A stretch of DNA of 40,777 nt from Bacteroidaceae bacterium (GTDB lineage: Bacteria > Bacteroidota > Bacteroidia > Bacteroidales > Bacteroidaceae), in NCBI GenBank assembly GCA_017464815.1, contig JAFTYI010000010.1, forward strand, positions 1 to 40,777, given 5' to 3'. How positions within the stretch are numbered: the stretch's first letter is position 1; each line of letters begins with the position of its first letter. The notes beneath the pieces were generated by a model. That model made no database searches and was not told where the DNA came from. It worked only from the letters and a program-made list of their open reading frames with translations. Of this stretch, positions 10,017 to 27,003 are shown in pieces. The translations under genes were made by a program, and so were the position numbers.

Positions 10017-10079
10017 TGTAGAAGTTTTGGACAATCTAGAAGTTCTAGAAAATCTAGAGAATCTAGAAAATCTAGAAAA
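10017..10079 (+). repeat. 9-bp tandem array 9a (unit AATCTAGAA)
   Basis: TCTAGA occurs at 10035, 10044, 10053, 10062 and 10071, exactly 9 bp apart. Two degenerate units (TGTAGA at 10017, TTTGGA at 10026) stay in phase. The array starts 15 bp after the upstream stop codon and ends 43 bp before ispE. It therefore occupies the intercistronic region and would be transcribed as AAUCUAGAA repeats if the two genes are co-transcribed. Confidence 0.85.
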
Positions 10080-10122
10080 AGAAACAAAAAAAACAGAAAA
10101 TCAAAAAAAACAATAGTCAATT

Positions 10123-10992
10123 ATGATAATCTTCCCCAATGCAAAAATCAACCTCGGCTTGAACGTCGTAGAGCGTCGCCCGGATGGTTACCACAACTTG
10201 GAAACGGTCTTCTACCCCATTCCTTTGCAGGATATATTGGAAGTGACCACCTTTGACGAAGCGCCCGGGCAGGTAGTGCCTGAAGGAGCCGATGTGGTGC
10301 TTCATGCCGGAGGCATTGCCATTGCAGGCGAGTCAGAAGATAACCTGGTGGTGAAGGCCTATCGCTTGCTGAAGGCTGAGTTTGAACTTCCGCCTGTGCA
10401 TATTCACATTTTCAAGCACATCCCCTCGGGTGCAGGCTTGGGAGGAGGTTCGGCCGATGCCACCTTCATGCTTCGTCTGTTGCGCGAGAAGTTTTCGCTT
10501 CCGCTCACCGATGATGAGTTGGAGGAGCGTGCCGCCCGCTTGGGAGCCGATTGTGCCTTTTTCGTGCGCAACACGCCCGCCTTTGCCACGGGCATAGGAA
10601 ACATCTTCACTCCCCTGCCCGACCTTTCGTTGAGGGGCTATCGCATCCTGTTGGTGAAGCCCGATATATTCGTCTCCACCCGCGATGCTTTCTCTCTCAT
10701 CCGTCCTCATAAACCGGTGCGTCCGTTGACCGAGATTGCTTCCCTTCCCGTCAACCAATGGCGCGAAGCCGGCATGTGCAACGATTTCGAAGAGAGCGTC
10801 TTTGCCAAGCATCCGGCCATTGGCGACATCAAGGAGCAGATTTATGAATTGGGAGCCGAGTATGCGGCCATGTCGGGTAGCGGTTCGTCGCTCTTCGGCC
10901 TTTTCTCTGAAGGGGCAGCTTTGCCCGATGTGGATGCTTTGCAGAAGATGTTTCCCGGTAGCTTTTGTTGGCATAGCCAATTGGAGGTGTAG
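10123..10992 (+). CDS. ispE: 4-diphosphocytidyl-2-C-methyl-D-erythritol kinase
   Basis: IspE phosphorylates CDP-ME at the 2-hydroxyl with ATP, the fourth step of the MEP pathway to isoprenoid precursors, in the cytoplasm. It is a GHMP kinase of typical length (289 aa). The N-terminal AKINLGLNV motif has Lys8, the ATP loop PSGAGLGGGSADA is at residues 101-113, and Asp143 sits in LGADCAFF. The C-terminal MSGSGSSLFGLF glycine loop is also present. It starts at ATG 10123, preceded by an A-rich stretch after the 9-bp array. The sequence around the stop codon is duplicated (AGCCAATTGGAGGTGT / AGCCAATAGGAGGTGT, 16 bp apart), a small recent tandem duplication. Confidence 0.95.
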   Translation: MIIFPNAKINLGLNVVERRPDGYHNLETVFYPIPLQDILEVTTFDEAPGQVVPEGADVVLHAGGIAIAGESEDNLVVKAYRLLKAEFELPPVHIHIFKHIPSGAGLGGGSADATFMLRLLREKFSLPLTDDELEERAARLGADCAFFVRNTPAFATGIGNIFTPLPDLSLRGYRILLVKPDIFVSTRDAFSLIRPHKPVRPLTEIASLPVNQWREAGMCNDFEESVFAKHPAIGDIKEQIYELGAEYAAMSGSGSSLFGLFSEGAALPDVDALQKMFPGSFCWHSQLEV

Positions 10993-11008
10993 CCAATAGG
11001 AGGTGTAG
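10975..11008. repeat. 16-bp direct duplication across the ispE stop
   Basis: AGCCAATTGGAGGTGT at 10975-10990 is repeated with one mismatch at 10991-11006. The first copy encodes the last residues of IspE. The duplication changes nothing upstream and probably arose by slippage. Confidence 0.7.
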
Positions 11009-11122
11009 CACCTGTGGTGGGGATTGGGCGAAGAAAGTGCGCATCGCCTTGTGTCTCATTTGCTGGATTCGTCGATGATTCACGGGTGTTTGTCGATAAA
11101 TCCATAAAAATGTGATGATTTT

Positions 11123-11154
11123 TTTGGGACAAAGAACAGAAATGTATATTTTTG
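11123..11154 (+). promoter_or_regulatory. promoter of the structured RNA
   Basis: TTTG at 11123-11126, 20 bp, then TATTTTTG at 11147-11154: a near-ideal Bacteroidetes promoter. Transcription should begin near 11161. Confidence 0.7.
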
Positions 11155-11160
11155 CCTCAC

Positions 11161-11347
11161 CGTATGTGTGAATACGGCCGTTCGTTTCAAGTTTTTATAA
11201 CGAAATCTCTCATCTTGCAAACTATGGTTTTTATCGTAAGGTTTTAAGTAAGGTTGTGTGAATTTGTATTGTAGTTTGCATAGAGGACGCTCTACCCAGG
11301 GACAAGATGTGAATCTCCTCCCGTGTATGGCGTCCTCTGCTTTTTTA
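11161..11347 (+). ncRNA. candidate structured RNA of about 185 nt with its own promoter and terminator
   Basis: No ORF is credible here. The stretch begins 7 bp after a good promoter and contains four stems in order. These are CGTAT/ATACG (11161-11176), TTCGTT/AACGAA (near 11180-11204), TGCAAACTA/TAGTTTGCA (11216-11280) and AGAGGACGC/GCGTCCTCT (11282-11338). The last is followed by GCTTTTTTAAT, a rho-independent terminator. The next gene (sensor kinase) begins 50 bp later. It may be a trans-acting small RNA, perhaps of the 6S-like or Bacteroidales-1 type in size and layout, or an attenuating leader of the kinase operon. The family match is not proven. Confidence 0.6.
11282..11347 (+). terminator. 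rho-independent terminator of the candidate RNA
   Basis: The 9-bp stem AGAGGACGC/GCGTCCTCT encloses a partly paired interior and is followed at once by GCTTTTTT. Nothing upstream but the structured RNA can use it. Confidence 0.7.
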
Positions 11348-11396
11348 ATAATCATGAAAACTGAGTGACAACATATATAAAAAATAGGTATATTGT

Positions 11397-12491
11397 ATGA
11401 CAGACAGACAAAAGTTATTGAACAACCCTCGCCTGTTGGAGGTGTTGATTCACGTCACGGCATGGTTGCTGATATTCGGGTTTCCGTTGGCCCTTATGGA
11501 GTATGGCAGCTTTGTCAAGTGGGATGGCATTGATTATTTGCGCCACCTGCGTATGCCGTTGGCTTTTGGTGTGGTGTTTTATGCCAACTACATCTGGCTG
11601 ATTACCAACGACCTGTTCGGGCGTGGGTGGAAGAAGTTTCTCTTCTGCAACGTCCTGTTGGTGTTGTCGATGGGATTGTTGGTGCATTTGTCGTGGGAGT
11701 GGTTGTATGCCCCTGCCTTTCATCATCCGCCTCGCATGCGCCCCGATGGCAACATGCCTCCGCCTCGTGTGTTGTTCTATTTCCGCGATGTGGTGATGCT
11801 GGGCTTCACCGTGGCATTGGCCGTGGTCATTCGCCTGAGTCGCGAGTGGCACAAGGCCGATGAGGCGCGTCGGGAGGCCGAGAATGCCCGCACCGATGCC
11901 GAGTTGAAGACGTTGCGCAACCAGCTCAGCCCTCATTTCCTGTTGAACACATTGAACAATATCTATGCCCTTATTGCCTTTGATTCCGAAAAGGCCCAGT
12001 TGGCCGTGTTGGAGTTGGGCAAGATGTTGCGCCACATGCTTTACGACAATCACCAGAAGTTCGTTTCCCTGCAAAGCGAAGCCGACTTTATCCACAACTA
12101 CGTTGAACTGATGCGCTTGCGCCTGCCTCGTGAAGTGGAGGTGGAGGTGGATATCCAAGTGCATCCCGAACGCGACACCCGGATTGCTCCCTTGATATTC
12201 ATCTCCTTGATAGAGAACGCCTTCAAGCATGGCATAAGCTCCACCGAGCGTAGCTTTGTCACCATCGGTTTGAAGGAGGAGAGTGACGGTGTCCATTGCA
12301 TCATCCGCAACAGCAATTTCCCCAAGAGCAGCACCGACAAGAGCGGGAGCGGCATAGGCCTCGAGCAGGTGAAGCGCCGCCTGAGATTGCTCTATCCCCA
12401 GCAATATGAGTGGCACTATGGCCCCACTGGTGATGAGGAGGGATGTTATGTGTCGGACTTGAAGATTTTTTTTGAAAAACAATTGAAATAA
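11397..12491 (+). CDS. LytS/YehU-type sensor histidine kinase (364 aa)
   Basis: A membrane sensor kinase of the His_kinase (PF06580) type. Four hydrophobic segments (about residues 15-35, 52-70, 81-101 and 128-147) anchor it. A His-rich loop (FHHPPRMRPDGNMPPPR) lies between segments 3 and 4 and might sense a ligand or metal. A short coiled coil (150-172) leads to the phosphoacceptor His180 in LSPHFLLNTLNNIYAL. The ATP-binding N-box is ENAFKHG (Asn274) and the G-box is SGSGIGLEQVKRRL. It should autophosphorylate His180 and pass the phosphate to the LytTR regulator encoded 15 bp downstream. The signal is unknown. Confidence 0.9.
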   Translation: MTDRQKLLNNPRLLEVLIHVTAWLLIFGFPLALMEYGSFVKWDGIDYLRHLRMPLAFGVVFYANYIWLITNDLFGRGWKKFLFCNVLLVLSMGLLVHLSWEWLYAPAFHHPPRMRPDGNMPPPRVLFYFRDVVMLGFTVALAVVIRLSREWHKADEARREAENARTDAELKTLRNQLSPHFLLNTLNNIYALIAFDSEKAQLAVLELGKMLRHMLYDNHQKFVSLQSEADFIHNYVELMRLRLPREVEVEVDIQVHPERDTRIAPLIFISLIENAFKHGISSTERSFVTIGLKEESDGVHCIIRNSNFPKSSTDKSGSGIGLEQVKRRLRLLYPQQYEWHYGPTGDEEGCYVSDLKIFFEKQLK

Positions 12492-12506
12492 TCCGAGTGA
12501 AAATAT

Positions 12507-13232
12507 ATGATACTGAATTGTGCCATTGTCGATGACGAGCCATTGGCGCTCGACCTGTTGGAGAGCTACGTGCGGAAAACCTCTTTTCTGAACCTCGTCG
12601 GGCGCTACTCCAGTGCCGTGTCAGCCATGTCGGAGATTCATCAGAGGAAGGTGGATTTGTTGTTTCTCGACATACAGATGCCGGGGATGGACGGATTGGA
12701 GTTTGCCAAAACGTTGCAGCACGCCGACATGCGGGTGGTCTTCACCACCGCCTTCAGCCAATATGCGATTGACGGGTTTCGGGTGAAGGCATTGGATTAC
12801 CTGCTCAAGCCCATCAGCTACCAAGCCTTCACCGAGGCTTCCGAGCGGGCTCTCGAGTGGTTCCGCTTGAAGCAAGGTGAAGCCACCGAAGCCGAATCCG
12901 GTCAACCCGATGACTGCATCTTTGTGAAAAGCGAATACAAATTGTTGCAAATCCAATTGAGTAAAATACTTTACATTGAAGGGCTGAAGGACTACGTGAA
13001 AATCTACACCGAGGACAATCCGCGCCCCATCCTTTCCCTCTCCAGCATGAAGGCCATGGAGGAGCGCTTGCCTGCCGACCGTTTCTTGCGCGTGCATCGC
13101 TCGTTCATTGTGCAGAAGGGGAAGGTGCGTGTCGTCGACCGCGGGCGCATCATCTTCGGCAACGTCAGCATCCCCGTCTCGGACAGCTACAAACAGGAGT
13201 GGGCTGCCTTCCTTAGCGGACATTCGTTGTGA
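12507..13232 (+). CDS. LytTR-family response regulator (241 aa)
   Basis: Partner of the kinase upstream, with a 15-bp gap that indicates one operon. The receiver domain (residues 1-120) is complete: acidic pair D9/D10, phosphoacceptor Asp55 in LLFLDIQMPGMDG, Thr80, and Lys101 in YLLKPI. The LytTR DNA-binding domain (about 140-238) has the LLQIQLSKILYIEGLKDYV start and the RFLRVHRSFIV strand that contacts DNA. Such regulators bind pairs of direct repeats upstream of target genes. No target site is obvious nearby. Confidence 0.93.
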   Translation: MILNCAIVDDEPLALDLLESYVRKTSFLNLVGRYSSAVSAMSEIHQRKVDLLFLDIQMPGMDGLEFAKTLQHADMRVVFTTAFSQYAIDGFRVKALDYLLKPISYQAFTEASERALEWFRLKQGEATEAESGQPDDCIFVKSEYKLLQIQLSKILYIEGLKDYVKIYTEDNPRPILSLSSMKAMEERLPADRFLRVHRSFIVQKGKVRVVDRGRIIFGNVSIPVSDSYKQEWAAFLSGHSL

Positions 13233-13239
13233 AAAAAAA

Positions 13240-13271
13240 GGGGGGGAAGTGGGAGCCTCCCACCCCCCCCC
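13240..13271. terminator. G/C-run hairpin after the two-component operon
   Basis: A8G8 is followed by GTGGGAGCCTCCCAC and then C9, giving a long G:C stem. The U-tract expected for termination lies on the minus strand (T8 after the C-G stem), so on the plus strand it is an atypical terminator. The homopolymer runs are also likely slippage sites. Confidence 0.45.
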
Positions 13272-13296
13272 TCTGAAAAATACCTATAGTTAGCGA

Positions 13297-13327
13297 TTGC
13301 ATATCTCCCCCGAATGACGTACCTTTG
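13297..13327 (+). promoter_or_regulatory. promoter of the hemerythrin-regulator operon
   Basis: TTG at 13297-13299 and TACCTTTG at 13320-13327, with a 20-bp spacing, fit the Bacteroidetes consensus. The hemerythrin start codon is 42 bp downstream. Confidence 0.6.
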
Positions 13328-13368
13328 CCGACGTATTTTTATTTTAGATAATGTGAAGACCCTTTTAT

Positions 13369-14175
13369 ATGGACAATGCTATTAACAAATATCGCTTGAC
13401 CGACCGGTTGAGCGACCTCATTCGCGACGATTACCGCATCTTGCAGGTGATGAGCCGCTTTGGCCTTCCCTTGGGCTTTGGTGACAAAAGCGTGCAAGAG
13501 GTTTGTGCCGCCCATGGCGTGGATGGCTACACGTTTCTGGCCGTGGCCAACTTCATGCAGGAGGAGGACGAGCAGGTGCACACCGACGTGGAGAATCTCT
13601 CCATCCCCTGCATGATGGACTATCTGAAGCGGGCCCATAGCTATTACCTCGACTTCTGCCTGCCCGCCATCCGTCATAAGCTGATTGAAGCCATCAACAG
13701 CCCTGCCAATCATCAGGTGGCTTTCCTCATACAGAAGTTCTTCGATGAATATGCCGCCGAGGTGCGCGAGCACATGGAGTTTGAAAACCGCCATGAATTC
13801 CACTACGTGAACAGCTTGATGCAAGGCGATGTGGAGGCAGCCGAGCGCATCACCCACGAGGCTTGTCCCATGAAGGCGTTGGTCCGCAAAGATGGCCAGG
13901 GAGCCCCCGTCAGTGTCTATCACGCCGGTGAACACAGCAACATCCTGCTCTTCACCCGCCAACATGCCTTGCAACACAAGCAGATTGACAGTAAACTCTC
14001 CGAATTGAAAAACATCATCATCAAATATTATCCTGCCTCGCAGGACAACCACCTGCTGAACGCCGTGCTGTTCGACATCTTCATTTGTGAAGAGGACTTG
14101 GCCCTGCATTGCCGCATCGAGGATTGCCTCTTTGTGCCAGCCGTGCGTCTGTTGGAGAAAACGTGTGGATTATGA
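13369..14175 (+). CDS. hemerythrin-like domain protein (268 aa)
   Basis: The likely role is sensing or handling O2, NO or damaged iron centres through a non-haem di-iron site. Residues 15-62 resemble the short N-terminal region of ScdA/YtfE repair proteins. The rest is a four-helix bundle with histidine/glutamate pairs where hemerythrin needs them: H90, H103, the EVREHMEFE helix (E131, H135, E139), the EHSNILLF..QH helix (H189, H199) and HCRIED (H247, E251). It lacks the cysteine pair typical of RIC proteins in its N-terminal part (only C46). The final ATGA overlaps the start of the LuxR-type regulator, so the two are translationally coupled and probably form one signalling unit. Confidence 0.82.
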   Translation: MDNAINKYRLTDRLSDLIRDDYRILQVMSRFGLPLGFGDKSVQEVCAAHGVDGYTFLAVANFMQEEDEQVHTDVENLSIPCMMDYLKRAHSYYLDFCLPAIRHKLIEAINSPANHQVAFLIQKFFDEYAAEVREHMEFENRHEFHYVNSLMQGDVEAAERITHEACPMKALVRKDGQGAPVSVYHAGEHSNILLFTRQHALQHKQIDSKLSELKNIIIKYYPASQDNHLLNAVLFDIFICEEDLALHCRIEDCLFVPAVRLLEKTCGL

Positions 14176-14819
14176 AACAACAACGGATTGAAACATTGCG
14201 CATAGCCGTAGCCGAAACGTCCGTCATCGTGCGTAGCGGTGTGGTGGCTGTGTTGAAGCGCTTGCCGGGTGTGCAAGTGCGCCCGGTGGAGGTGGCTTCA
14301 CCCGACGCGTTGGAAAATTGCCTGCACATGGACACGCCCGACATCCTGTTGGTGAACCCCACCTTTGGCGGATGGTTCAACGTGGCCGAGTTCCGCACCG
14401 ACTCCGTGCATGCCTCCGTCAAGTGCATAGCCCTGAATTGCAACATCACCGACACCTCCATCCTGCAAGCATTCGATGAAAGCATAACCCTTCATGAAGA
14501 CATCAGCAGCTTGCAGGAGAAAATCCTGCGCGTCGTCTCCTACGGCATCAGCGAAGCCGACTACGACGAGGAGAAGGACGCTCCTGCCCTCCCCTCCGAG
14601 TCAGCCGAGCAACTGAGCCAACGCGAAAGGGAGATAGTCATCTGTGTGGTCAAGGGGATGACCAACAAGGAGATTGCCGACAAGCTCTACCTTTCGGTGC
14701 ACACCGTGAATACCCACCGCCGAAACATTGCCCGCAAGCTCGAAATACACTCGGCTGCCGGACTCACCATCTACGCCATTGTCAACAAATTGGTTGAACT
14801 GGGTGAGGTGAAATTGTGA
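14172..14819 (+). CDS. LuxR/NarL-type regulator with degenerate receiver (215 aa)
   Basis: The C-terminal 65 residues are a classic LuxR helix-turn-helix (LSQREREIVICVVKGMTNKEIADKLYLSVHTVNTHRRNIARKL). The first 120 residues have receiver-like order but lack phosphorylation residues. The acidic pair is replaced by AETS (only E15), and the phosphoacceptor position in DILLVNPTF is Asn62. It therefore should not be activated by a histidine kinase in the normal way. The start ATG at 14172 overlaps the TGA of the hemerythrin gene; an earlier in-frame start at 14109 lies inside that gene and is less likely. The pairing suggests that the hemerythrin protein, rather than a kinase, controls this regulator. 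That is an inference. Confidence 0.88.
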   Translation: MKQQRIETLRIAVAETSVIVRSGVVAVLKRLPGVQVRPVEVASPDALENCLHMDTPDILLVNPTFGGWFNVAEFRTDSVHASVKCIALNCNITDTSILQAFDESITLHEDISSLQEKILRVVSYGISEADYDEEKDAPALPSESAEQLSQREREIVICVVKGMTNKEIADKLYLSVHTVNTHRRNIARKLEIHSAAGLTIYAIVNKLVELGEVKL

Positions 14820-14891
14820 TTTTTCCATAAAAAACCGCACTATTCGCACAATACGTACCTGAAAAAATGGTGGTTTTTCAGAAAATAGTAT

Positions 14892-14899
14892 TACCTTTG
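14892..14899 (+). promoter_or_regulatory. -7 box (TACCTTTG) upstream of corA leader
   Basis: TACCTTTG fits the consensus; the -33 region is weak. It would give a 5' leader of about 170 nt before the ATG at 15075. Confidence 0.5.
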
Positions 14900-14910
14900 T
14901 GCGCTCTTTT

Positions 14911-14981
14911 CATGTGAGGGGTGTCCAGATTCCTCACGTAAGGATGGCTTTTTTTCCGAGACAAAAGGAAGCCGCCTTTAA
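14911..14981 (+). promoter_or_regulatory. two-hairpin 5' leader of corA
   Basis: Hairpin 1 pairs ATGTGAGG (14912-14919) with CCTCACGT (14932-14939). Hairpin 2 pairs AAGGATGGCTT (14940-14950) with AAGCCGCCTT, with an inner TTCC/GGAA pair near 14955-14970. The stems cover much of the predicted leader. A long folded leader before a Mg2+/Co2+ transporter may be regulatory, but it does not resemble the known M-box. Confidence 0.4.
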
Positions 14982-15074
14982 AAATGTTACGGGGCAAGAG
15001 AGACTAATAAAACAAACTTGCAAACCGCTCCCGGATGCATAAGTGTGTGCGACGGGGCAAAAAAAGAGAAATGT

Positions 15075-16007
15075 ATGCGTGCATTCTGGAAAATCAAACC
15101 GCAAATCGAACCGCTGGAAAAGTGGGAGTCAAACTGCTGGATACAGGTAACAAGCCCATCAGAGGAAGATGCCGACTACCTGATTAACGAATTGCAGGTG
15201 CCCGACTATTTCCTGTCGGACATTGCCGACGTGGACGAGCGTTCGCGTGTAGAGACCGAAGACGGATGGACCATGATCATCCTCCGCGTCCCCTATATGA
15301 ACCCCACAAAGGGAGCCTCGCGCTCGCCCTACACCACCGTCCCGCTAGGCATCATCCTCAAGAAGGACATCTGCATCACCGTGTGCTACTATATCACCAA
15401 AATGATGAACGACTTCCTCGGCCATTACCAGCGCAAGGGGAAAGGCTTCACCGACTCGGTGGACATGACCTTCCGCCTCTTCCTCTCCTCCTCCGTGTGG
15501 TATCTGAAGTTTCTGAAGAAGATTAACTATGAAATCGAGGAAGCCAAGCGCGACCTCGACAAGAGCATCGATAATGAGGACCTCATCAACCTCAGCTCGT
15601 TGCAGAACTCACTGACCTTCTTCATGAACTCCATCCGTGGAAACGAGACACTCCTCTCGCAAGTGAAGTTCAAGCTCCCCGTCGACGAGCTGGATGCCGA
15701 ACTGATTGAAGATGTCAACATCGAGATGAAGCAGGCACGCGAAAGCGCCTACATCTACAGCAACATCCTTGAAAGCGCGGTCAACACCTATGCCAGCGTC
15801 ATCAACAACAACATGAACACCGTGATGCGACTCATGACCTCGGTGAGCATCGTCCTCATGTTTCCCACGCTCATCGCCAGCCTCTATGGTATGAACCTCA
15901 AGAATGGCATGGAGGACAACCCCTGGGGGTTCTACAAGGTGCTCGTCTTCTCCCTTCTCGTCAGTGGAGCCATCATTTGGATGTTCCGTCGCCGTCGATG
16001 GTTGTGA
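15075..16007 (+). CDS. corA: CorA-family divalent cation transporter (310 aa)
   Basis: Inner-membrane magnesium/cobalt channel of the CorA type, active as a pentamer. The cytoplasmic N-terminal funnel (residues 1-200, including the IADVDERSRVETEDGWTMII strand region) is followed by the long acidic stalk helix. Two C-terminal membrane helices follow, with the signature YGMN at 271-274 (LIASLYGMNLKNGME). The basic tail RRRRWL lies after helix 2. The start ATG at 15075 is preceded by AAAAAAAGAGAA. An upstream TTG at 15018 keeps the frame open but gives an unlikely N-terminus. A structured leader precedes the gene. It stands alone; the next gene is convergent. Confidence 0.92.
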   Translation: MRAFWKIKPQIEPLEKWESNCWIQVTSPSEEDADYLINELQVPDYFLSDIADVDERSRVETEDGWTMIILRVPYMNPTKGASRSPYTTVPLGIILKKDICITVCYYITKMMNDFLGHYQRKGKGFTDSVDMTFRLFLSSSVWYLKFLKKINYEIEEAKRDLDKSIDNEDLINLSSLQNSLTFFMNSIRGNETLLSQVKFKLPVDELDAELIEDVNIEMKQARESAYIYSNILESAVNTYASVINNNMNTVMRLMTSVSIVLMFPTLIASLYGMNLKNGMEDNPWGFYKVLVFSLLVSGAIIWMFRRRRWL

Positions 16008-16057
16008 TTACCTATATGTGATTACCCTCCCCTTGGGAAAATACCATAAAAGTGGGA

Positions 16058-16296: not shown

Positions 16297-16299
16297 TTC

Positions 16300-16878
16300 T
16301 TACAACATCCCTGAGCGCACGCGGCTCAGTGTCTCAGGGCTCATCTGAAGGAACGAGGCGATGTGCACCAAGGGGGCACGCTTGATGATTTCGGGATGGC
16401 GCTCCATCAGCAGGCGATAGCGGTCGTGAGCCGTTTCAAAGCGCATGTCGTCGGCCTTTTGTTGCGAGACAAGCAGGGAGTATTCAAAGATTTTGCGGTA
16501 GAAATACTCCACTTCGCGCATCTCTTCGGTGAGGCGATAGAAATTCTCCTTGCTGATGCGCCAAATGATGGAGGGCTCGAGGGTTTCGGCCATCAGGCGG
16601 GTCGGCTCGTTTCGCAGGTAGCTTTCCAAGCAGATCACCACATTGCCTTCGTAAGAGATGTGCTCGGTCAGGTCGCGCTTGTTCTTGAAGTAGAATTGGC
16701 GCACCATCCCCTTCTCCACGTAGTGGATATGGTGGGCAATGTCTCCCTCCTTGATGAACACTTCGCCCTTGGCCAACTTCAGCGGCTCCATTATCAGCGA
16801 CAAGGCTTTGGTCGCCTCGGGTGAAAGGCGGCGGTACTGTTCGGTGAACATCTTGGCAATTTCGTAGCGTCTTTCCAT
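16300..16878 (-). CDS. Crp/Fnr-family transcription regulator (192 aa)
   Basis: The cyclic-nucleotide-binding jelly roll occupies residues 15-115 (LKLAKGEVFIKEGDIAHHIHYVEKGMVRQFYF), followed by a long dimer helix and a C-terminal helix-turn-helix (IASFLQMSPETLSRVR). The cAMP-binding arginine/glutamate signature (RxxS with FGE) is absent and there is no N-terminal cysteine cluster, so it is neither a true Crp nor an Fe-S Fnr. Bacteroidetes carry many such small regulators with unknown effectors. It lies downstream of lepA on the same strand, separated by the 9-bp array 9b, which ends 25 bp before the start codon. Confidence 0.88.
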   Translation of the reverse strand: MERRYEIAKMFTEQYRRLSPEATKALSLIMEPLKLAKGEVFIKEGDIAHHIHYVEKGMVRQFYFKNKRDLTEHISYEGNVVICLESYLRNEPTRLMAETLEPSIIWRISKENFYRLTEEMREVEYFYRKIFEYSLLVSQQKADDMRFETAHDRYRLLMERHPEIIKRAPLVHIASFLQMSPETLSRVRSGML

Positions 16879-16903
16879 GTATATGATTGTTATATTAGGT
16901 TTT

Positions 16904-17050
16904 CTAGAGTCCTAGATTTCCTAGATTTTCTAGATATCCTAGACTTCCTAGATTTTCTAGAGCTTCTAGATTATCTAGATTATCTAGAACTTCTAGAACT
17001 TCTAGCACTTCTAGATTAACTAGCGCTTCTAGGCTTTCTGTTCCTCTAGA
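16904..17050 (-). repeat. 9-bp tandem array 9b (unit AATCTAGAA on the minus strand)
   Basis: CTAG occurs 16 times between 16904 and 17049. Fourteen occurrences in a row, from 16912 to 17029, are spaced exactly 9 bp. Read in the direction of the flanking genes, the consensus unit is AATCTAGAA, the same as array 9a. It fills the gap between the lepA stop (17075) and the crp start (16878). CTAG is normally a rare tetranucleotide in bacterial DNA, so this density is striking. Confidence 0.9.
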
Positions 17051-17074: not shown

Positions 17075-18856
17075 TTAATCCAGTTTCAGCACCGCCAGGA
17101 AGGCCTTCTGTGGCACCTCCACGTTGCCGATTTGCTTCATGCGCTTCTTACCCTTCTTCTGCTTCTCGAGCAGTTTGCGCTTGCGGCTCACGTCGCCACC
17201 GTAGCACTTAGCGGTCACGTCCTTACGCACCTGTTTCACGGTTTCGCGGGCAATGATTTTGGCACCGATGGCCGCTTGGATGGCGATGTCGAACTGTTGG
17301 CGCGGAATCAGCTCCTTCAGCTTCTCACACATGCGGCGTCCGAAGTTTTCGGCGTTGTCAAAGTGCGTCAGTGTCGAAAGGGCGTCCACCGGTTCGCCAT
17401 TGAGCAGGATGTCCAGCTTCACCAGCTTCGAGGGACGGAATCCGTTCATGTGGTAATCAAACGAGGCGTAACCCTTCGAGATGCTCTTCAATTTGTCATA
17501 AAAATCTATCACAATTTCTCCCAAAGGGATGTCGTAGAAAATCTCCACACGGTTGCCCGAAATGTATTCTTGCTTTACCAACTCGCCGCGCTTGCCGAGG
17601 CAGAGGGTCATGATGGGGCCGATGTAGTTGGTGGTGGTGATGACCGAGGCTCGGATGTATGGCTCCTCGATGTGGTCGATGAGTGTGATGTCGGGCATAC
17701 CCGAGGGGTTGTGCACCTCCTTGCATCCGCCTTGCTTGTCAAATATCTTGTACGACACGTTGGGCACCGTAGTGATGACGCTCATGTCAAATTCCCTGTC
17801 GAGTCGCTCTTGGATAATCTCCATGTGCAACAGGCCCAGGAATCCGCAACGGAATCCGAAGCCCAGTGCCACCGACGACTCCGGCTGGAAGGTCAGCGAA
17901 GCATCGTTCAGCTGGAGTTTCTCGAGCGAAGCACGCAGGTTTTCGTAATCCTCTGCCTCAATGGGATATACACCCGCAAACACCATCGGCTTCACCTCCT
18001 CGAAGCCCTCGATGGCCTTGTCACAGGGGCGGGCAATGTGGGTGATGGTGTCGCCCACCTTCACCTCCTTCGAGGTCTTGATGCCCGAGATGATGTAGCC
18101 CACGTCGCCCGTGCGAAGTTCGGCGCGTGGCATCATGTCCATCTTCAACACACCAATCTCGTCGGCATCGTATTCTTTACCTGTGTTAAAGAACTTTACC
18201 TTGTCGCCCTTGCGGAGCACTCCGTTCGTAATCTTGAAGTAAGCGATGATTCCGCGGAAAGAGTTGAACACCGAGTCGAAGATGAGCGCTTGCAGAGGAG
18301 CCTCCTCGTCGCCTGTCGGATGTGGCACACGCTCGACGATGGCTTGTAAAATTTCTTCCACTCCCATGCCCGTCTTTCCCGAGGCACGGATAATCTCTTC
18401 GCGCTTGCATCCGAGCAGGTCAACGATTTCATCCTCCACCTCGTCGGGCATCGCACTGTCCATGTCGCACTTGTTCATCACGGGGATGATTTCAAGGTCG
18501 TGCTCCAGTGCCATGTAGAGGTTGCTGATGGTCTGAGCCTGCACCCCCTGCGAAGCGTCCACAATGAGCAGAGCGCCCTCACAAGCAGCGATGGAGCGCG
18601 ACACCTCGTAGGAGAAGTCCACGTGTCCCGGGGTGTCAATCAAGTTCAGGATGTATTTCTCGCCCTTATATTCATACTCCATCTGTATGGCGTGGCTCTT
18701 GATGGTGATGCCTCGCTCCTGCTCAAGGTCCATGTTGTCAAGCATTTGACCCTGGGTTACTTGGATGGTTTTGGTGTATTCAAGCAATCGGTCGGCCAAG
18801 GTGGATTTTCCGTGGTCGATATGTGCAATGATGCAGAAGTTTCTTATATTTTTCAT
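17075..18856 (-). CDS. lepA: elongation factor 4 (LepA), back-translocating GTPase
   Basis: LepA is a ribosome-associated translational GTPase. The G domain motifs are complete: AHIDHGKST (P-loop), the GITIKSHAI switch I, DTPGHVDF (switch II) and MNKCD. It is followed by EF-G-like domains II, III and V, and the C-terminal LepA-specific domain ([21 protein letters not shown]). The length of 593 aa is typical. The start [14 protein letters not shown] at 18856 fits family starts; the frame is open 30 codons further upstream, but that extension has no similarity and overlaps the promoter. Plus-strand frames running opposite are shadows. Confidence 0.97.
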
Positions 18857-21203: not shown

Positions 21204-21247
21204 AATTTTTTTCTACTATATTTCAGTGCTAAGGAATATTTGCTTTG

Positions 21248-21280
21248 GACCCTTCCCTACTCCTCCGCAAGGGAAGGGGG
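21248..21280. repeat. REP-like element R3, diverged
   Basis: GACCCTTCCCTACTCC...GGGAAGGGGG keeps the family palindrome with a changed loop. It sits between R2 and R4 in the gap upstream of the lipoprotein gene. Confidence 0.6.
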
Positions 21281-21301
21281 TATATGTCCTGCTATACTAT
21301 T

Positions 21302-21336
21302 CACTCCTTCCCCTTGGGGAAAGTTGGGATGGAGGC
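21302..21336 (+). repeat. REP-like element R4
   Basis: CACTCCTTCCCCTTGGGGAA followed by AGTTGGGATGGAGGC, almost identical to R1. It ends 10 bp from the TSCPD gene's stop codon. Confidence 0.85.
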
Positions 21337-21345
21337 TGCTGTATT

Positions 21346-21594: not shown

Positions 21595-21623
21595 TCGTTA
21601 AATAAAAATACAGATTAACCAAC

Positions 21624-21660
21624 GGACCCTATCCCAACCTTCCCCAAGGGGAAGGAGTGA
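21624..21660 (-). repeat. REP-like element R5
   Basis: GACCCTATCCCAACCTTCC...GGGGAAGGAGTGA, the reverse orientation of R1. It forms an inverted doublet with R6, 31 bp away. Confidence 0.85.
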
Positions 21661-21691
21661 ATGGTCTTGACAATAAAAAGTACAAACATTT

Positions 21692-21730
21692 CACTCCTCT
21701 CCCTTGTGGAGGGGTAAAGGTGAGGGTCCG
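21692..21730 (+). repeat. REP-like element R6
   Basis: CACTCCTCTCCCTTGTGGAG followed by GGGTAAAGGTGAGGGTCC. Same end sequences (CACTCC and GGGTCC) with a changed loop. It ends 15 bp from the YebC stop. Confidence 0.8.
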
Positions 21731-21744
21731 CTGGTTCCTCTATT

Positions 21745-22476
21745 TTACTCCTCTTCCGGCTTCATGTTTGTGTAAACCGTCTGCACGTCGTCGAACTCTT
21801 CGAGGCGTTCAACCATCTTGTCGATGGTGGCGCGCTGCTCTTCGGTGACGTCCTTCTGGTCATTGGGGATGTAGGTGAACTCGCCACCCACGTCTTCGAA
21901 TCCGCCTTCCTCGAGGTGTTTTTGGATGGCCGAGAAGCTGGTGGGTGCACCGTAGATGGTGATTGTGCCCTCTTCCTCGTCCTCGTCGAAGTCCTCCTCC
22001 ACGTCGAAGTCAATCATCTCGAGGATGAACTCTTCCATGTCCATGCCGTCCTTCTTCTTGAAGGTGAACACACACTTGTGGTCGAAGAGGAATGCGAGTG
22101 AACCGGTGGTACCAAGGTTGCCACCGAACTTGTTGAACACCGAGCGCACGTCGGCTACGGTGCGGGTGGTGTTGTCGGTGAGTGTGTCCACGAACACGGC
22201 CACTCCGTGGGGGCCATATCCTTCGTAGGTCATGCTCTTGTAGTCGCTCTGGTCTTTACCCATGGCGTTCTTGATGGCACGCTCGATGTTGTCCTTCGGC
22301 ATGTTTTCGCGCTTGCAGGTGGCGATGATTGAACGCAATGTGGGGTTTGTGTCAGGTTCGGGACCTCCTGCCTTCACGGCAATGGCAATCTGCTTACCCA
22401 GGCGGGTAAAGGTTTTGGCCATGTGGCCCCATCTTTTCATTTTGGCAGCTTTTCTGTATTCAAATGCTCTTCCCAT
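21745..22476 (-). CDS. YebC/PmpR-family protein (243 aa)
   Basis: A member of the YebC/TACO1 family, recently viewed as translation factors that help ribosomes through difficult motifs and earlier annotated as transcription regulators. The conserved N-terminus MGRAFEYRKAAKMKRWGHMAK, the KRENMPKDNIERAIKNAMGK helix and the YEGYGPHGVAVFVDTLTDNTTRT strand motif are all present. The acidic loop DVEEDFDEDEEEG is at about 160. The length is typical. It sits downstream of pheT on the same strand with a REP doublet between them. Confidence 0.93.
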   Translation of the reverse strand: MGRAFEYRKAAKMKRWGHMAKTFTRLGKQIAIAVKAGGPEPDTNPTLRSIIATCKRENMPKDNIERAIKNAMGKDQSDYKSMTYEGYGPHGVAVFVDTLTDNTTRTVADVRSVFNKFGGNLGTTGSLAFLFDHKCVFTFKKKDGMDMEEFILEMIDFDVEEDFDEDEEEGTITIYGAPTSFSAIQKHLEEGGFEDVGGEFTYIPNDQKDVTEEQRATIDKMVERLEEFDDVQTVYTNMKPEEE

Positions 22477-22500
22477 AGGATTGAAATTTATGAAAGAGAA

Positions 22501-22540
22501 GACCCTCCCCCCTTACCCCTCCCTCTATGGAGGGGAGTGA
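22501..22540 (-). repeat. REP-like element R7
   Basis: GACCCTCCCCCCTTACCCCT, then CCCTCTATGGAGGGGAGTGA. It pairs with R8 in inverted orientation across 84 bp of AT-rich DNA. Confidence 0.85.
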
Positions 22541-22624
22541 GAAGAATCTGTCTCGCTATTATTTTATTACAATTACAATTACTTTTACTTTTATTACTAT
22601 ATTGTATTTCTATTCAAATACTAT

Positions 22625-22663
22625 CTACTCCCCTCCATAGAGGGAGGGGGAAGGGGGAGGGTC
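22625..22663 (+). repeat. REP-like element R8
   Basis: CTACTCCCCTCCATAGAGGG followed by AGGGGGAAGGGGGAGGGTC, a near-perfect inverse of R7. It ends 7 bp from the pheT stop. Confidence 0.85.
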
Positions 22664-22669
22664 TTCCCT

Positions 22670-25132
22670 TTACCTCAACTTCGCCTGCAACTTATTCTCC
22701 AAGTTGGCAATGATTTTGCCCATAATCTTGTCGATTTGCTTGTCGCTCATCGTGGCGTTTTCGTCCTGCAGGAGGAAGCTCACGGCGTAGCTCTTCTTTC
22801 CGGCTTCGAGGTTCTTGCCTTCATAGACGTCGAAGAGGGCGACCTCCTTGAGGAGCTTGCGCTCGCTCTCGTAGGCAATCTTTTCGATGTCGGCAAACTG
22901 CACGGCCTTGTCGATGAGCAGGGCCAAGTCGCGTTTCACGGCGGGGTATTTGCTCAGCTCCTTGTAGCTCACCTTCTGGTTCTTGATGGCGCGCATCAGC
23001 TCCTTCCAGTTGAGCTCGGCGTAATAGACTTCGTTGTCGATGTCGAACTTGCGCTGGATCTTCTTGGTGATGATGCCGATGGTGGCAAGGAGTTTTCCGC
23101 CACGGGTGTGGATGGTGATGGCGTTGGCAAAGATGTCGTTCGCCAGTGTGCCGAAGACCACGGTGCTGAGGTTAAGGCCAAGGCGTGCGAAGATGTTGAG
23201 CACGTAGGCCTTCAGCTCGAACACCGAGGCGGCTTCGTCGGCATGTGCCCACGAGTTGTTCACGCGCTTGCCGGTCACCCACAGGCCGAGCAGGCTCTTC
23301 TCCTGATAGGGTGCGAGCACCTTCTCATCGTCCTTCTTCTCGGCATGGTAGCTGTAGCAGGTGCCGTATTCGAAGAACTTCAGGTCGGCACTCTTGCGGT
23401 TGGCGTTGTGCATGATGCTCTCCAATCCGCCGAAGAGCAGGGTCTGACGCATCACGTTCAGGTCATTGCTCAAGGGGTTCATCAGGCGCACGAGGTTGGT
23501 GGCGGGGTAAGTCTCCAGCTCGTCGTAGTAGGCCGATGCGGTGAGCGAGTTGTTGAGTATTTCGTTGAATCCGCAACCTACCAGTTGCTCGGCCACGAGG
23601 TTCTGCAACTTGTGGCTCTTGTCGGCTTCGCCCTTGGTGGTGAGGCTCGACTTCAGGGTGGTGGGGATTTCCACGTTGTTATATCCATAGATGCGCAGGA
23701 TGTCCTCCACCACGTCGCACGGGCGCTGCACGTCCACGCGGTAGGCGGGCACCTGGAGGGTGATGCCTTCGCTTGTCTCGCTCACAATCTTCATCTCCAG
23801 CGAGGTGACGATGCTCTTCACCGTGTCGGCAGGGATGTCCTTGCCGGCCAACATGTTCACGTAGGCGTAGTCAAGCTCTACGGTGAAGTCGCTGATGGGC
23901 GCGGGATAGACATCGGTCAGCTCCATCGAGATGGTTCCTCCGGCCAACTCCTTCACGAGCAGGGCGGCTTGCTTGAGGGCATAGATGCAACCGTTGGGGT
24001 CGATGCCGCGCTCAAAACGGAAGCTGGCATCGGTGCTAAGGCCGTGGCGACGTGCGCTCTTGCGAATCCATGTGGGGTTGAAGTAGGCGCTCTCGAGGAA
24101 GACGTTCTTTGTCTCCTCCGTTGTGCCCGATTCGAGGCCACCGAACACACCACCGATGCACATGGGCTCTTCGGCGTTGCAAATCATGAGGTCGCGCTCG
24201 CTGAGCTTGCGCTCCACTTCGTCGAGTGTGACGAACGGTGTGCCCTCGGGCATGGTCTTCACCACCACGGTGCCACCCTTGATTTTGTCGGCATCGAAGG
24301 TGTGCAGGGGTTGTCCGTAGGCGTGGAGGATGTAGTTGGTGATGTCCACAATGTTGTTGATGGGTCGCAGGCCGATAAGGCGCAACTTGTTTTGCAACCA
24401 CTCGGGGCTCTCCTTCACGGTCACTCCCTTCACGGTCACTCCCGCATAGCGCGGGCAAGCCTCGGTATTCTCCACGCGGATGGTGATGGGCAGGTCGTTG
24501 TTTTCTACACTGAATGCATCGCACGAGGGGCGTGTCAGAGATGTCTCCCTACCCTGCTGGACGAGCCAAGCGTAGAGGTCGCGGGCCACACCGTAGTGCG
24601 AGCAAGCGTCGGCACGGTTGGGTGTGATGTCCACCTCAATCACATAGTCGCTCTTGATGCCATAGTAGTCCTTGGCAGGTGTGCCGGGCACGGCGTCGGC
24701 GGGTAACACGATGATGCCATCGTGGCTGGTGCCAATGCCGATTTCATCCTCGGCACAAATCATACCGTTCGACTCCACACCGCGGAGTTTCGATTTCTTG
24801 ATGGTGAAGCACTCGTCGCCATCGTAGAGCTTGGTGCCCAAGGTGGCTACAACCACCTTCTGACCAGCTGCTACGTTGGGCGCACCACACACGATTTGTA
24901 CGGGTTCGCCACTTCCGAGGTTCACGGTGGTCACGTGCATGTGGTCGCTATTGGGGTGCTCCTCGCAGGTCAACACTTCACCGATGACGATGCCTTCGAG
25001 GCCGCCCTTGATTGTCTGCACCTCGTCCACCGAGCCCACTTCGAGGCCGATGGAGGTCAGCGCGGCCGACACCTCTTCGGGAGTCATGTCAAAGCTCACA
25101 TATTCTTTGAGCCAATTGTAAGATATATTCAT
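22670..25132 (-). CDS. pheT: phenylalanine-tRNA ligase beta subunit
   Basis: PheT is the larger subunit of the alpha2beta2 synthetase that charges tRNA-Phe and edits mischarged Tyr. At 820 aa it has the full bacterial layout. An EMAP-like tRNA-binding domain (about 40-150, EVLTCEEHPNSDHMHVTTVN) is followed by the B3/B4 editing domain (YAGVTVKGV), the B5 domain and the catalytic-like core. A C-terminal anticodon-binding FDX-ACB domain (YPAVKRDLALLIDKAVQF) completes it. PheS is not beside it, which is common in Bacteroidetes. A TACCTTTG box at 25176-25183 supplies a promoter. A long plus-strand open frame opposite this gene is a shadow. Confidence 0.97.
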   Translation of the reverse strand: MNISYNWLKEYVSFDMTPEEVSAALTSIGLEVGSVDEVQTIKGGLEGIVIGEVLTCEEHPNSDHMHVTTVNLGSGEPVQIVCGAPNVAAGQKVVVATLGTKLYDGDECFTIKKSKLRGVESNGMICAEDEIGIGTSHDGIIVLPADAVPGTPAKDYYGIKSDYVIEVDITPNRADACSHYGVARDLYAWLVQQGRETSLTRPSCDAFSVENNDLPITIRVENTEACPRYAGVTVKGVTVKESPEWLQNKLRLIGLRPINNIVDITNYILHAYGQPLHTFDADKIKGGTVVVKTMPEGTPFVTLDEVERKLSERDLMICNAEEPMCIGGVFGGLESGTTEETKNVFLESAYFNPTWIRKSARRHGLSTDASFRFERGIDPNGCIYALKQAALLVKELAGGTISMELTDVYPAPISDFTVELDYAYVNMLAGKDIPADTVKSIVTSLEMKIVSETSEGITLQVPAYRVDVQRPCDVVEDILRIYGYNNVEIPTTLKSSLTTKGEADKSHKLQNLVAEQLVGCGFNEILNNSLTASAYYDELETYPATNLVRLMNPLSNDLNVMRQTLLFGGLESIMHNANRKSADLKFFEYGTCYSYHAEKKDDEKVLAPYQEKSLLGLWVTGKRVNNSWAHADEAASVFELKAYVLNIFARLGLNLSTVVFGTLANDIFANAITIHTRGGKLLATIGIITKKIQRKFDIDNEVYYAELNWKELMRAIKNQKVSYKELSKYPAVKRDLALLIDKAVQFADIEKIAYESERKLLKEVALFDVYEGKNLEAGKKSYAVSFLLQDENATMSDKQIDKIMGKIIANLENKLQAKLR

Positions 25133-25175
25133 ACGCGTATGTTATTTTATATATTTTTCTTTTTAAAAAGACGTG

Positions 25176-25183
25176 CAAAGGTA
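25176..25183 (-). promoter_or_regulatory. -7 box of pheT
   Basis: CAAAGGTA on the plus strand reads TACCTTTG on the minus strand, 44 bp upstream of the pheT ATG. Confidence 0.55.
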
Positions 25184-25198
25184 ATGCTTTCTATTGAA

Positions 25199-25253
25199 AA
25201 AACCGAAATATAAGTGGCGAAAAGTGTGTTTTTGCTACTTATATCTCGGTTTT
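25199..25253 (-). terminator. long hairpin terminator of dnaB
   Basis: About 20 bp of nearly continuous pairing (AAAACCGAAATATAAGTGGC with GCTACTTATATCTCGGTTTT) around a 15-nt loop, followed on the minus strand by a T-tract. It separates dnaB from the pheT promoter. Confidence 0.75.
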
Positions 25254-25309
25254 ATAGCCTATTCTTGACGAATTACATCTTGGTTTTCGTGGCTTGGACA
25301 CCTGTGTTG

Positions 25310-26857
25310 TCAAAATGGTACTCCCTCAATGGGGCTTGCACCAAAGGGCATTCCTTCTGCCGGAGGCGGTGGTGGAGGAGGCATCCCCGGGCCATCAGCA
25401 TTCATTCGTGAACCCAGCATCTGCTCTTCGCCAGGCATGGGCACAAGGGATTCGTCGTCGGGGTTTTGGAAACGGGCAAACTCGCCACGGAAGCGCAGGA
25501 GGACGTCGCCCACGGCACCGTTACGATGCTTGGCAATGATGATTTCGGCCATACCGCGGAGGTCGCGTCCCTTCTCATCCTGAAGAATTTTGTAGTACTC
25601 GGGGCGGTGGATGAAGCACACCATGTCGGCATCCTGCTCGATGGCTCCCGATTCGCGCAGGTCGCTGAGCTGAGGACGCTTGCCCTCGTTTCCGTCGCGC
25701 TGCTCCACACCACGGTTGAGCTGGCTGAGGGCGATGATGGGGATGTTCAGCTCCTTGGCCAATCCCTTGAGCGAACGCGAGATGGTAGAGACCTCTTCTT
25801 GTCGGCTACCGTAGCTCATGCCCGAGGCGTTCATCAGCTGGAGGTAGTCGATGATGATGATTTTCACCCCATGTTCGCGCACCAGTCGGCGGGCTTTGGT
25901 GCGGAGTTCGAAGACGCTGAGCGAGGGGGTGTCGTCGACGTACAACGGGGCACCCATGAGGTCCTTCAGACGATAGTCGAGTTGTCCCCACTCGTAGGGG
26001 GCAAGTTGTCCGCTCTTGATTTTCTCACCGGGGATTTCGCAGACGTTCACGATGAGACGATTCACCAGCTGAACGTTGCTCATTTCAAGCGAAAACATGG
26101 CTACGGGCACACGATTCGTCACGGCTATGTTCTTGGCCATAGAGAGCACGAAGGCGGTCTTTCCCATGGCCGGTCGGGCGGCAATGATGATGAGGTCGGA
26201 GTTCTGCCATCCGCTGGTCATCTTGTCGAGCCCTCGGAAACCGCTCTCGAGGCCACTGAGACCATCGGTGCGGGCGGCGGCTTTCTGCAACATGTCGTAG
26301 GCATCTTTGATGACGGGGTCAATCTGCGTGTAGTCCTTCTTCATGTTCTGTTGCGAGATTTCGAAGAGCTTGCCTTCGGCCTCCTGCATCAGGTCGTCCA
26401 CGTCCTGAGTCTCGTCAAATGCCTTGCCTTGTATGGTGCTGGTGTAGGTAATCAGTTCGCGTGCCAGGTGCTTCTGTGCAATGATTCGCGCGTGGTACTC
26501 GATGTGGGCACTGGATGCCACCTTTCCGCTCAGTTGGGTGATGTAGAAGGGGCCGCCTGCCTCTTCAAGTTCGCCGGTGGAGCGCAATTGCTCGGTGACG
26601 GTGAGGATGTCCACCGGCTTTTGTTGCAGGGCCAGCGTGGTGATGGCCTTGTAGAGCAGCTGGTGGCGATGCTCGTAAAACGACTCGGGTTTCAGTATGT
26701 CGCTCACCTGTGAGTAGGCGTCGCTTTCAATCATCAGGGCGCCCAACACCACCTCCTCCAACTCGATGGCTTGGGGTTGCAGGTGGCCATATTCGCCAGT
26801 GGCTGGCGTGGCGGGTGTCTTGCGTGTGTTGCGCGGGGTTCTTCGGGTTTCTGCCAT
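25310..26857 (-). CDS. dnaB: replicative DNA helicase DnaB
   Basis: DnaB is the hexameric 5'-3' helicase of the replication fork. The N-terminal DnaB domain (residues 20-130, QAIELEEVVLGALMIESDAY) precedes the RecA-like motor. The motor contains Walker A GRPAMGKTAF, the VPVAMFSLEMS strand, the Walker B region IIIIDYLQLM and LSQLNRGVEQR, plus the C-terminal KHRNGAVGDVLLRF. The length of 515 aa is normal except for a C-terminal tail with seven prolines in a row, then AEGMPFGASPIEGVPF. The tail is probably disordered and could bind a partner. Array 9c ends 25 bp before the start codon. Confidence 0.96.
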   Translation of the reverse strand: MAETRRTPRNTRKTPATPATGEYGHLQPQAIELEEVVLGALMIESDAYSQVSDILKPESFYEHRHQLLYKAITTLALQQKPVDILTVTEQLRSTGELEEAGGPFYITQLSGKVASSAHIEYHARIIAQKHLARELITYTSTIQGKAFDETQDVDDLMQEAEGKLFEISQQNMKKDYTQIDPVIKDAYDMLQKAAARTDGLSGLESGFRGLDKMTSGWQNSDLIIIAARPAMGKTAFVLSMAKNIAVTNRVPVAMFSLEMSNVQLVNRLIVNVCEIPGEKIKSGQLAPYEWGQLDYRLKDLMGAPLYVDDTPSLSVFELRTKARRLVREHGVKIIIIDYLQLMNASGMSYGSRQEEVSTISRSLKGLAKELNIPIIALSQLNRGVEQRDGNEGKRPQLSDLRESGAIEQDADMVCFIHRPEYYKILQDEKGRDLRGMAEIIIAKHRNGAVGDVLLRFRGEFARFQNPDDESLVPMPGEEQMLGSRMNADGPGMPPPPPPPAEGMPFGASPIEGVPF

Positions 26858-26881
26858 GGTTTTTCTGTTGTTTTAAGTTTT

Positions 26882-27003
26882 TTATAGTGGCTGTGGTGCC
26901 TATAGTTCCTATAGTATCTATAGTATCTATAGTATCTATAGTATCTATAGTATCTATAGTATCTATAGTTCCTATAGTTATATAGTTTCTATAGCTTCTA
27001 TCA
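26882..27003 (-). repeat. 9-bp tandem array 9c (unit CTATAGNNN)
   Basis: CTATAG occurs at 26900, 26909, 26918, 26927, 26936, 26945, 26954, 26963 and 26972, exactly every 9 bp. Degenerate units continue on both sides to 26882 and 27003. The middle six units are identical (TATCTATAG). The array fills the gap between the abcF stop (27017) and the dnaB start (26857). It shares period and placement with arrays 9a and 9b, but its core palindrome is CTATAG instead of TCTAGA. Confidence 0.9.

What the first reader, a model, noticed from the sequence alone, without database searches (positions are those of the whole stretch)
10017..27003. Three 9-bp-period arrays placed just before ispE, crp and dnaB
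Each array fills the gap between two co-directional genes. Each starts 13-25 bp after the upstream stop and ends about 25-43 bp before the next start codon. CTAG or CTATAG recurs every 9 bp with almost no phase slips (14 consecutive spacings in the crp array, nine in the dnaB array). In the direction of transcription, arrays 9a and 9b have the same unit, AATCTAGAA. Identical placement and orientation relative to three unrelated genes is hard to explain by drift. They could be mRNA elements tuning translation or stability, binding arrays, or products of a mutational process at intercistronic joints. CTAG is usually avoided in bacteria, which makes the density stranger.
Basis: seen in the sequence. 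Interest (0 to 1): 0.7.

Follow-up and report, generated by a model that had tools for sequence, protein, structure and literature searches.

The report
Nine-bp lattices of palindromic hexamers
Short stretches between genes in some gut bacteria carry the same six-letter palindrome repeated exactly every nine letters, with free letters in between, which looks more like a cooperative landing strip for an unknown DNA-binding protein than like random repeat growth.

Summary
The arrays are real. They are three members of a genome-wide class: CTATAG or TCTAGA (CTAG core) repeated at exactly 9 bp, with 3 bp free between hexamers. In 425 kb of this genome these two palindromes dominate such runs. The class is patchy: CTATAG arrays in 51 of 399 family genomes, reversed control in 1; isolates and gut/rumen genomes labelled Victivallales or Kiritimatiellae have CTAG arrays too. 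On contigs C1-C40 of the window genome there are 8 runs of 4-10 CTAG units and no lone run of 2-3, unlike slippage. Spacers within an array are about half diverged while cores, which the search required, are exact. CTAG arrays show an 18-bp super-period. They avoid divergent gaps (4 of 119; background 156 of 933, p=2e-5) and lie between stop codon and A-rich leader. 'Placed before ispE, crp and dnaB' is incidental. Best reading, inferred: cooperative DNA-binding arrays for an unidentified protein. An RNA hairpin is the main rival; a G:U test does not favour it. My literature searches found no description.

The parts
10033..10079 (+). array 9a: five TCTAGA-type units at 9-bp steps, followed by an A-rich leader (about 10080-10122)
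   Evidence: same-word array with other spacers in the orthologous gap of G002, 8-bp gap without array in G012
16903..17049 (-). array 9b: 14 CTAG units in exact 9-bp register plus two out-of-register sites, between lepA and the crp-like gene
   Evidence: gap of 2 to 36 bp without array in G008, G014, G007; CTAG array in G002
26898..27003 (-). array 9c: nine exact CTATAG units at 9-bp steps and flanking imperfect ones, between an ABC-F type gene and dnaB
   Evidence: irregular CTATAG array in G002; promoter-like sequence (consensus recalled) and no array in G005, G012, G013
8833..10002 (+). gene upstream of array 9a (PLD-domain protein)
10123..10992 (+). gene downstream of array 9a (ispE-like GHMP kinase)
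17075..18856 (-). gene upstream of array 9b (lepA)
16300..16878 (-). gene downstream of array 9b (192-aa cNMP-binding, crp-like)
27017..28894 (-). gene upstream of array 9c (ABC-F type ATPase)
25310..26857 (-). gene downstream of array 9c (dnaB)

Best explanation
Each array is a row of operator-like palindromic sites (TCTAGA in some arrays, CTATAG in others) that a dimeric DNA-binding protein, not yet identified, occupies cooperatively at a fixed step of 9 bp; about four or more contiguous sites are needed, so that single hexamers are inert. Arrays grow locally, CTAG arrays preferentially by 18-bp (two-site) duplications; the 3-bp spacers then drift while the hexamers are held. They settle in gaps behind stop codons, clear of promoters and of the A-rich start-codon leader, which fits a role such as chromosome-wide nucleoprotein nucleation or local control of transcription through operons better than classical promoter control. 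Shown: word, spacing, lack of lone short runs, spacer turnover, placement, patchy linked occurrence of the two words. Inferred: the protein, cooperativity, that the gaps are transcribed, and the function.
For: Of all hexamers with runs of 4 or more at spacing 9 in 425 kb of G000, CTATAG (12) and TCTAGA (7) dominate; ACTATA (9) overlaps CTATAG units and the others have 2 or less; both are palindromes; TCTAGA chains of 3 or more occur at 9, 18, 27 bp only. G000 contigs C1-C40: 8 runs of 4-10 CTAG units, no lone 2-3 unit run, about 7 expected from geometric growth. In stretches chosen mostly for arrays: 57 runs of 4 or more (CTAG 45, CTATAG 12) against 3 lone runs of 2-3. Spacer identity within arrays 0.535 per base, between arrays 0.288. 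All three window gaps carry same-word arrays with other spacers in G002. G006, without CTAG or CTATAG arrays, has one relic with all three hexamers mutated in the gap orthologous to a G000 array. The words co-occur: CTAG arrays in 34 of 42 CTATAG-positive and 13 of 38 CTATAG-negative genomes of a chosen set, p=3e-5. End substitutions of TCTAGA show no G:U preference (TCTAGG 19, CCTAGA 31). Viral contigs: 4 and 10 stretches, control word 7.
Against: No binding protein was found; TrpR, recalled as using CTAG half-sites, is not there (0 of 37 over cut-off, 3 weak matches below it). Operators are usually at promoters, whereas these arrays avoid divergent gaps. Sense-strand bias of spacers shows that something acts with transcription. 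In G013 one orthologous CTATAG array has decayed although the genome keeps others. The dnaB array of G002 is irregular. Short runs are not absent: 2-3 unit runs occur beside other copies (CTATAG 6, CTAG 2 in the G000 stretches), and if the two 2-unit runs 54 bp apart on contig C8 are counted as separate short arrays, P rises from 7e-4 to 0.024. Cores were part of the search pattern in most data sets, which inflates their apparent conservation; in the word-free scan 63 of 160 arrays have uneven columns at p<0.05 (8 expected). One shared generating process could also explain the linked words.
Confidence: 0.4

Rival explanations
1. RNA element: the transcribed array folds on itself, since any palindromic hexamer pairs with any other, into a long hairpin of 6-bp helices with 3-nt loops, which protects or processes the intercistronic mRNA or tunes the downstream gene.
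For: All three window arrays fold better than dinucleotide shuffles (z -3.3, -5.5, -6.0). Placement behind stop codons and outside divergent gaps, sense-strand bias and the 18-bp super-period of CTAG arrays fit a transcribed hairpin unit. A length threshold is also expected.
Against: Any palindromic array folds this way, so the z-scores are no independent test. Variants that keep pairing by G:U are not favoured: 26 against 38 that break it, p=0.17. Neighbouring spacers are not complementary (z 0.7) and complementary matches at lag 2 are below chance. No difference between odd and even spacers counted from either array end, and no excess of even-numbered arrays (53 even, 55 odd). It does not explain why two of 64 palindromes dominate.
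Confidence: 0.25
2. Neutral minisatellites made by replication slippage in gaps where insertions are harmless; words are accidents of history.
For: Local duplication is clear (spacers within an array resemble each other, lag-2 excess). Arrays come and go between close relatives and one has decayed. Avoidance of promoters is expected for any insertion. Short-period arrays of 7, 8 and 22 bp also occur in these genomes.
Against: The same two palindromes in several genera and in genomes labelled Victivallales or Kiritimatiellae (TCTAGA/CTAG only tested there); exact 9-bp step; lack of lone 2-3 unit runs; exact cores with diverged spacers.
Confidence: 0.2
3. Mobile or REP-like element: arrays are spread in ready-made form by a transposase.
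For: Patchy occurrence, intergenic placement and palindromes resemble REP elements; 9-bp-phased inverted hairpin elements occur in the same genus.
Against: Spacers of different arrays are 28.8% identical per base, against 53.5% within arrays, so arrays are not recent copies of each other; no GTAG or CGTC tag seen; units are 9 bp.
Confidence: 0.08

Closest known systems
RHH centromere/operator arrays (pSM19035 parS heptads, passages read in PMC9499535; met boxes recalled)
   Same: Contiguous short DNA sites at a fixed step; four or more contiguous sites needed for pSM19035 parS
   Different: Step 9 bp instead of 7 (8 for met boxes, recalled); exact palindromic hexamer with free 3-bp spacer; tens of chromosomal arrays; protein unknown here
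TAACTGA heptamer repeats of Beggiatoaceae, Cyanobacteria and five Bacteroidetes (PMC4679880, passages read, parts of the abstract among them)
   Same: Intergenic short direct repeats close to start codons, sporadic across phyla
   Different: Seven bp, one non-palindromic word, no variable spacer
REP / GTAG and CGTC palindromes (PMC3733652, passages read, parts of the abstract among them)
   Same: Palindromic, patchy between species
   Different: 20-40 bp palindromes with a tetranucleotide tag, not a 9-bp lattice
BrickBuilt MITE minisatellite of Porphyromonas gingivalis (PMC4596501, search listing with start of abstract only)
   Same: Tandem repeat array in a Bacteroidales genome
   Different: A minisatellite inside a transposable element; repeat length about 23 bp is recalled

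Membership tests
RHH-type parS/operator arrays | contiguous sites at one fixed step | tested here: met
   TCTAGA chains of 3 or more at 9, 18, 27 bp only, spacings 6-30 examined; CTATAG had single chains at 28 and 30 besides
RHH-type parS/operator arrays | minimum number of contiguous sites | tested here: inconclusive
   no lone 2-3 unit CTAG run on G000 C1-C40 among 8 longer runs, 3 lone short runs against 57 longer ones in stretches chosen mostly for arrays; P 7e-4 to 0.024 by the counting of contig C8
RHH-type parS/operator arrays | bound by an RHH protein | not testable with these tools
   no candidate protein; needs pull-down
TrpR operators | a TrpR protein (PF01371) in the genome | tested here: not met
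   0 of 37 genomes over cut-off; E. coli and B. subtilis controls positive
REP elements (GTAG/CGTC) | 20-40 bp palindrome with terminal GTAG or CGTC tag | tested here: not met
   9-bp units, sequences, by inspection
REP elements (GTAG/CGTC) | associated RAYT transposase | not tested
   no search run
Simple sequence repeats by slippage | run lengths falling steadily from two copies | tested here: not met
TAACTGA-type heptamer repeats | 7-bp copies of one word | tested here: not met
   period 9, variable spacer
Known structured RNA families | Rfam match | tested here: not met
   0 matches over gathering score in the window

The most novel reading that the evidence does not exclude
A chromosomal system, undescribed as far as my searches reach and occurring in two phyla, in which an unknown dimeric protein polymerises on 9-bp-step lattices of one of a few palindromic words, with tens of arrays per genome behind genes, as nucleation sites for chromosome organisation or transcription control.
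Probability: 0.3. Interest if true: 0.8.

Novelty: new variant of a known kind. Interest (0 to 1): 0.6.

Why it matters
If the lattice reading holds, a bait duplex of fixed design could fish out a new DNA-binding protein family from cultured Prevotella-like isolates, and arrays gained and lost between sister species would give natural controls for its role. If the RNA reading holds, it is a new class of intercistronic element. Either way these arrays occur in many gut and rumen genomes without a description that I could find.

Tried and rejected
TrpR (PF01371): none over cut-off. Rfam: nothing in the window. Backup stop codons: frame of TAG against the upstream ORF 59/44/37, p=0.067 for CTAG arrays, 10/6/4 for CTATAG, p=0.25: at most weak. 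Extended palindromes or paired spacers: lag-1 reverse-complement identity z 0.7. Loop/linker parity: none. My early guess that most other 9-bp words are palindromes failed: 19 arrays of other words were no more palindromic than shuffles. Phage origin: 4 and 10 stretches against 7 for a control word in viral contigs. Literature: searches found no description of such arrays; only the open-licence library was searched. Rows dropped: 19 arrays inside called genes and 13 at contig ends of 151 were left out of the context test; identical arrays were counted once; arrays with out-of-phase sites were left out of the parity count. Gene calls come from my own script, not a standard caller. Many stretches were fetched because they hold arrays, so array density from them is not representative; the named loci were chosen by TCTAGA itself. 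For one search I picked 42 of the 51 CTATAG-positive and 38 of the 348 negative genomes. On checking, the best explanation went from 0.42 to 0.40 and slippage from 0.18 to 0.20, because of the short runs beside other copies.
Full report
OBSERVATION. The three arrays exist as described, with small count corrections: 5 CTAG units before ispE, 14 in exact register before the crp-like gene, 9 exact CTATAG units before dnaB. In the window the periods found are 9, its multiples, and 22 bp. Pfam confirms the gene neighbourhoods; the crp-like protein matches only a cNMP-binding domain and follows lepA.

GENOME-WIDE. The window is contig C41 of a 2.63-Mb MAG. The 4-unit CTAG pattern has 63 hits and the 3-unit CTATAG pattern 57; reversed controls have none. 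In 425 kb of this genome, of all hexamers with runs of 4 or more at spacing 9, CTATAG (12) and TCTAGA (7) dominate; ACTATA (9) overlaps CTATAG units and the rest have 2 or less. TCTAGA chains of 3 or more occur only at 9, 18 and 27 bp; CTATAG chains at 9, 18 and 27 plus one at 28 here and one at 30 in the named loci. A word-free periodicity scan of stretches from nine genomes, several of them picked for arrays, finds periods 7, 9 and 21-23 favoured. 63 of 160 nine-bp arrays have uneven columns (8 expected), 12 of 60 seven-bp arrays and 0 of 36 22-bp arrays.

DISTRIBUTION. In the genus, CTAG arrays are in 3 of 15 genomes and CTATAG arrays in 4 of 15, one of them with a single hit. CTATAG arrays occur in 51 of 399 family genomes, the reversed word in 1. 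In a set of 80 that I chose, CTAG arrays are in 34 of 42 CTATAG-positive and 13 of 38 CTATAG-negative genomes; among 37 family genomes seen both words are in 6, one in 4, none in 27 (p=2e-4). Named hits shown are mostly rumen and gut Prevotella-like or Bacteroidales MAGs, three records not labelled MAG or uncultured, and MAGs labelled Victivallales, Lentisphaeria and Kiritimatiellae (capped). Thirteen of these genomes were counted: 262, 73 and 90 hits in the Victivallales, 133 in the Lentisphaeria, 51 and 24 in the Kiritimatiellae, 27, 21 and 65 in P. timonensis, Prevotella sp. tc2-28 and MN60, 45, 101 and 73 in three further Bacteroidales MAGs; reversed control 7 in the Victivallales genome with 73, 0 in the others save a Lake Pavin proteobacterium with 1 hit and 1 control hit, so chance there. 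Counts that high make contamination unlikely, but I did not check single contigs by gene phylogeny. Viral contigs hardly have them.

PLACEMENT. Of 151 CTAG chains, 90 are in co-directional, 25 in convergent and 4 in divergent gaps (19 in called genes, 13 at ends); background gaps of 60 bp or more are 647, 130 and 156 (p=2e-5). A second set from other fetched stretches gave 21, 2 and 0, with 2 in called genes; background 106, 18, 25 (p=0.028). For CTATAG the numbers are too small to tell (16 co-directional, 2 convergent, 1 divergent, 1 in a called gene). Median distance from stop codon to array is 13 nt and from array to start codon 36 nt (n=90). Spacers are purine-rich in the sense of transcription in 65 CTAG arrays and the reverse in 20; control gaps 257 and 176 (p=0.003); the second set 14 and 5, p=0.06; CTATAG 11 and 5, p=0.21.

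ORTHOLOGOUS GAPS. The ispE gap is 8 bp without array in G012 and has a CTAG array with other spacers and a similar A-rich leader in G002 (only these two relatives were compared). For the crp-like gene 12 of 15 orthologues were inspected. The end of lepA is visible upstream in eight: G000 and G002 have CTAG arrays; G008, G014 and G007 have gaps of 2 to 36 bp, and G006, G012 and G004 longer gaps without array. In G005, G013, G001 and G010 lepA is not seen in the 260 nt shown. The dnaB gap has promoter-like sequence (consensus recalled) and no array in G005, G012 and G013 and an irregular CTATAG array in G002. So all three gaps have same-word arrays in G002. A protein tree groups G000, G005, G006, G002, G013 and G012 but leaves their order open. 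G006 keeps one relic with all three hexamers mutated, in the gap orthologous to a G000 array. One CTATAG array of G000 is decayed in G013.

SELECTION OR SLIPPAGE. On G000 contigs C1-C40, which the listing covers whole, CTAG runs have 10, 7, 5, 4, 6, 8, 7 and 6 units. Four 2-unit runs exist: two beside longer runs and two on C8, 54 bp apart and in phase, which I count as one interrupted array. With none taken as lone, a geometric law fitted to the long runs expects about 7 and gives P 7e-4; with the C8 runs taken as two, P is 0.024. In the fetched stretches 57 runs have 4 or more units and 3 short runs are lone, while 13 short runs lie near another copy. Spacers are 53.5% identical per base within arrays and 28.8% between arrays, so arrays grow locally and are not recent copies of each other. 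Spacers two units apart are more alike than shuffles (z 6.3 pooled; 6.2 in the first set, 1.9 in the second) and neighbours less alike (z -3.3 pooled): the unit of duplication is mostly 18 bp. For CTATAG the 13 runs available show no such alternation.

DNA OR RNA. The arrays fold well as RNA, as any palindromic array must. Variants that keep an RNA pair by G:U are not favoured over those that break it (26 against 38, p=0.17), neighbouring spacers are not complementary, and there is no loop/linker parity. This points to recognition of double-stranded DNA, but the sense bias and the placement keep the RNA rival alive.

MECHANISM. I favour cooperative binding of a dimeric protein to about four or more palindromic sites at a 9-bp step (0.40). 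The closest worked example is pSM19035 parS, where at least four contiguous heptads are needed (PMC9499535, passages read). The protein is unknown; TrpR is excluded. Function is inferred only: nucleoprotein nucleation or local control of transcription.

NOVELTY. No paper found in eight searches of an open-licence library describes these arrays. Heptamer repeats (PMC4679880) and tagged palindromes (PMC3733652), of which I read passages, differ in period, word and spacer behaviour.

Noticed in passing
window 8436-8538, 29829-29943, 33620-33759, 36794-36886, 40510-40622: 22-bp-period arrays; in 36 such arrays from the fetched sequences the consensus is far more palindromic than shuffles (33% against 1.8% at score 7 or more), and 11 of 35 lie in divergent gaps (p=0.037), so they behave like operators.
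   Followed up: partly
G002, G005, G006, G012, G013, G030 stretches (L080-L105, L110, L111): 7-bp and 8-bp arrays with species-specific words are common in relatives.
   Followed up: no
L034 about 10330-10520; L044; L051: Inverted hairpin elements built from 9-bp words (GACGCGGAT, GGAGTTANN) lie in gaps; at the L034 place the relative G013 has a CTAG array instead.
   Followed up: no
whole window: GATC is rare: 9 in 40.8 kb, 5.0 per 10 kb on contig C42, against 25.4 in the G030 stretch.
   Followed up: no
L024 about 320-1220 (G000:C42:40320-41220): A gene flanked by two CTATAG arrays is missing from the orthologous place in G006, where a relic array remains.
   Followed up: partly
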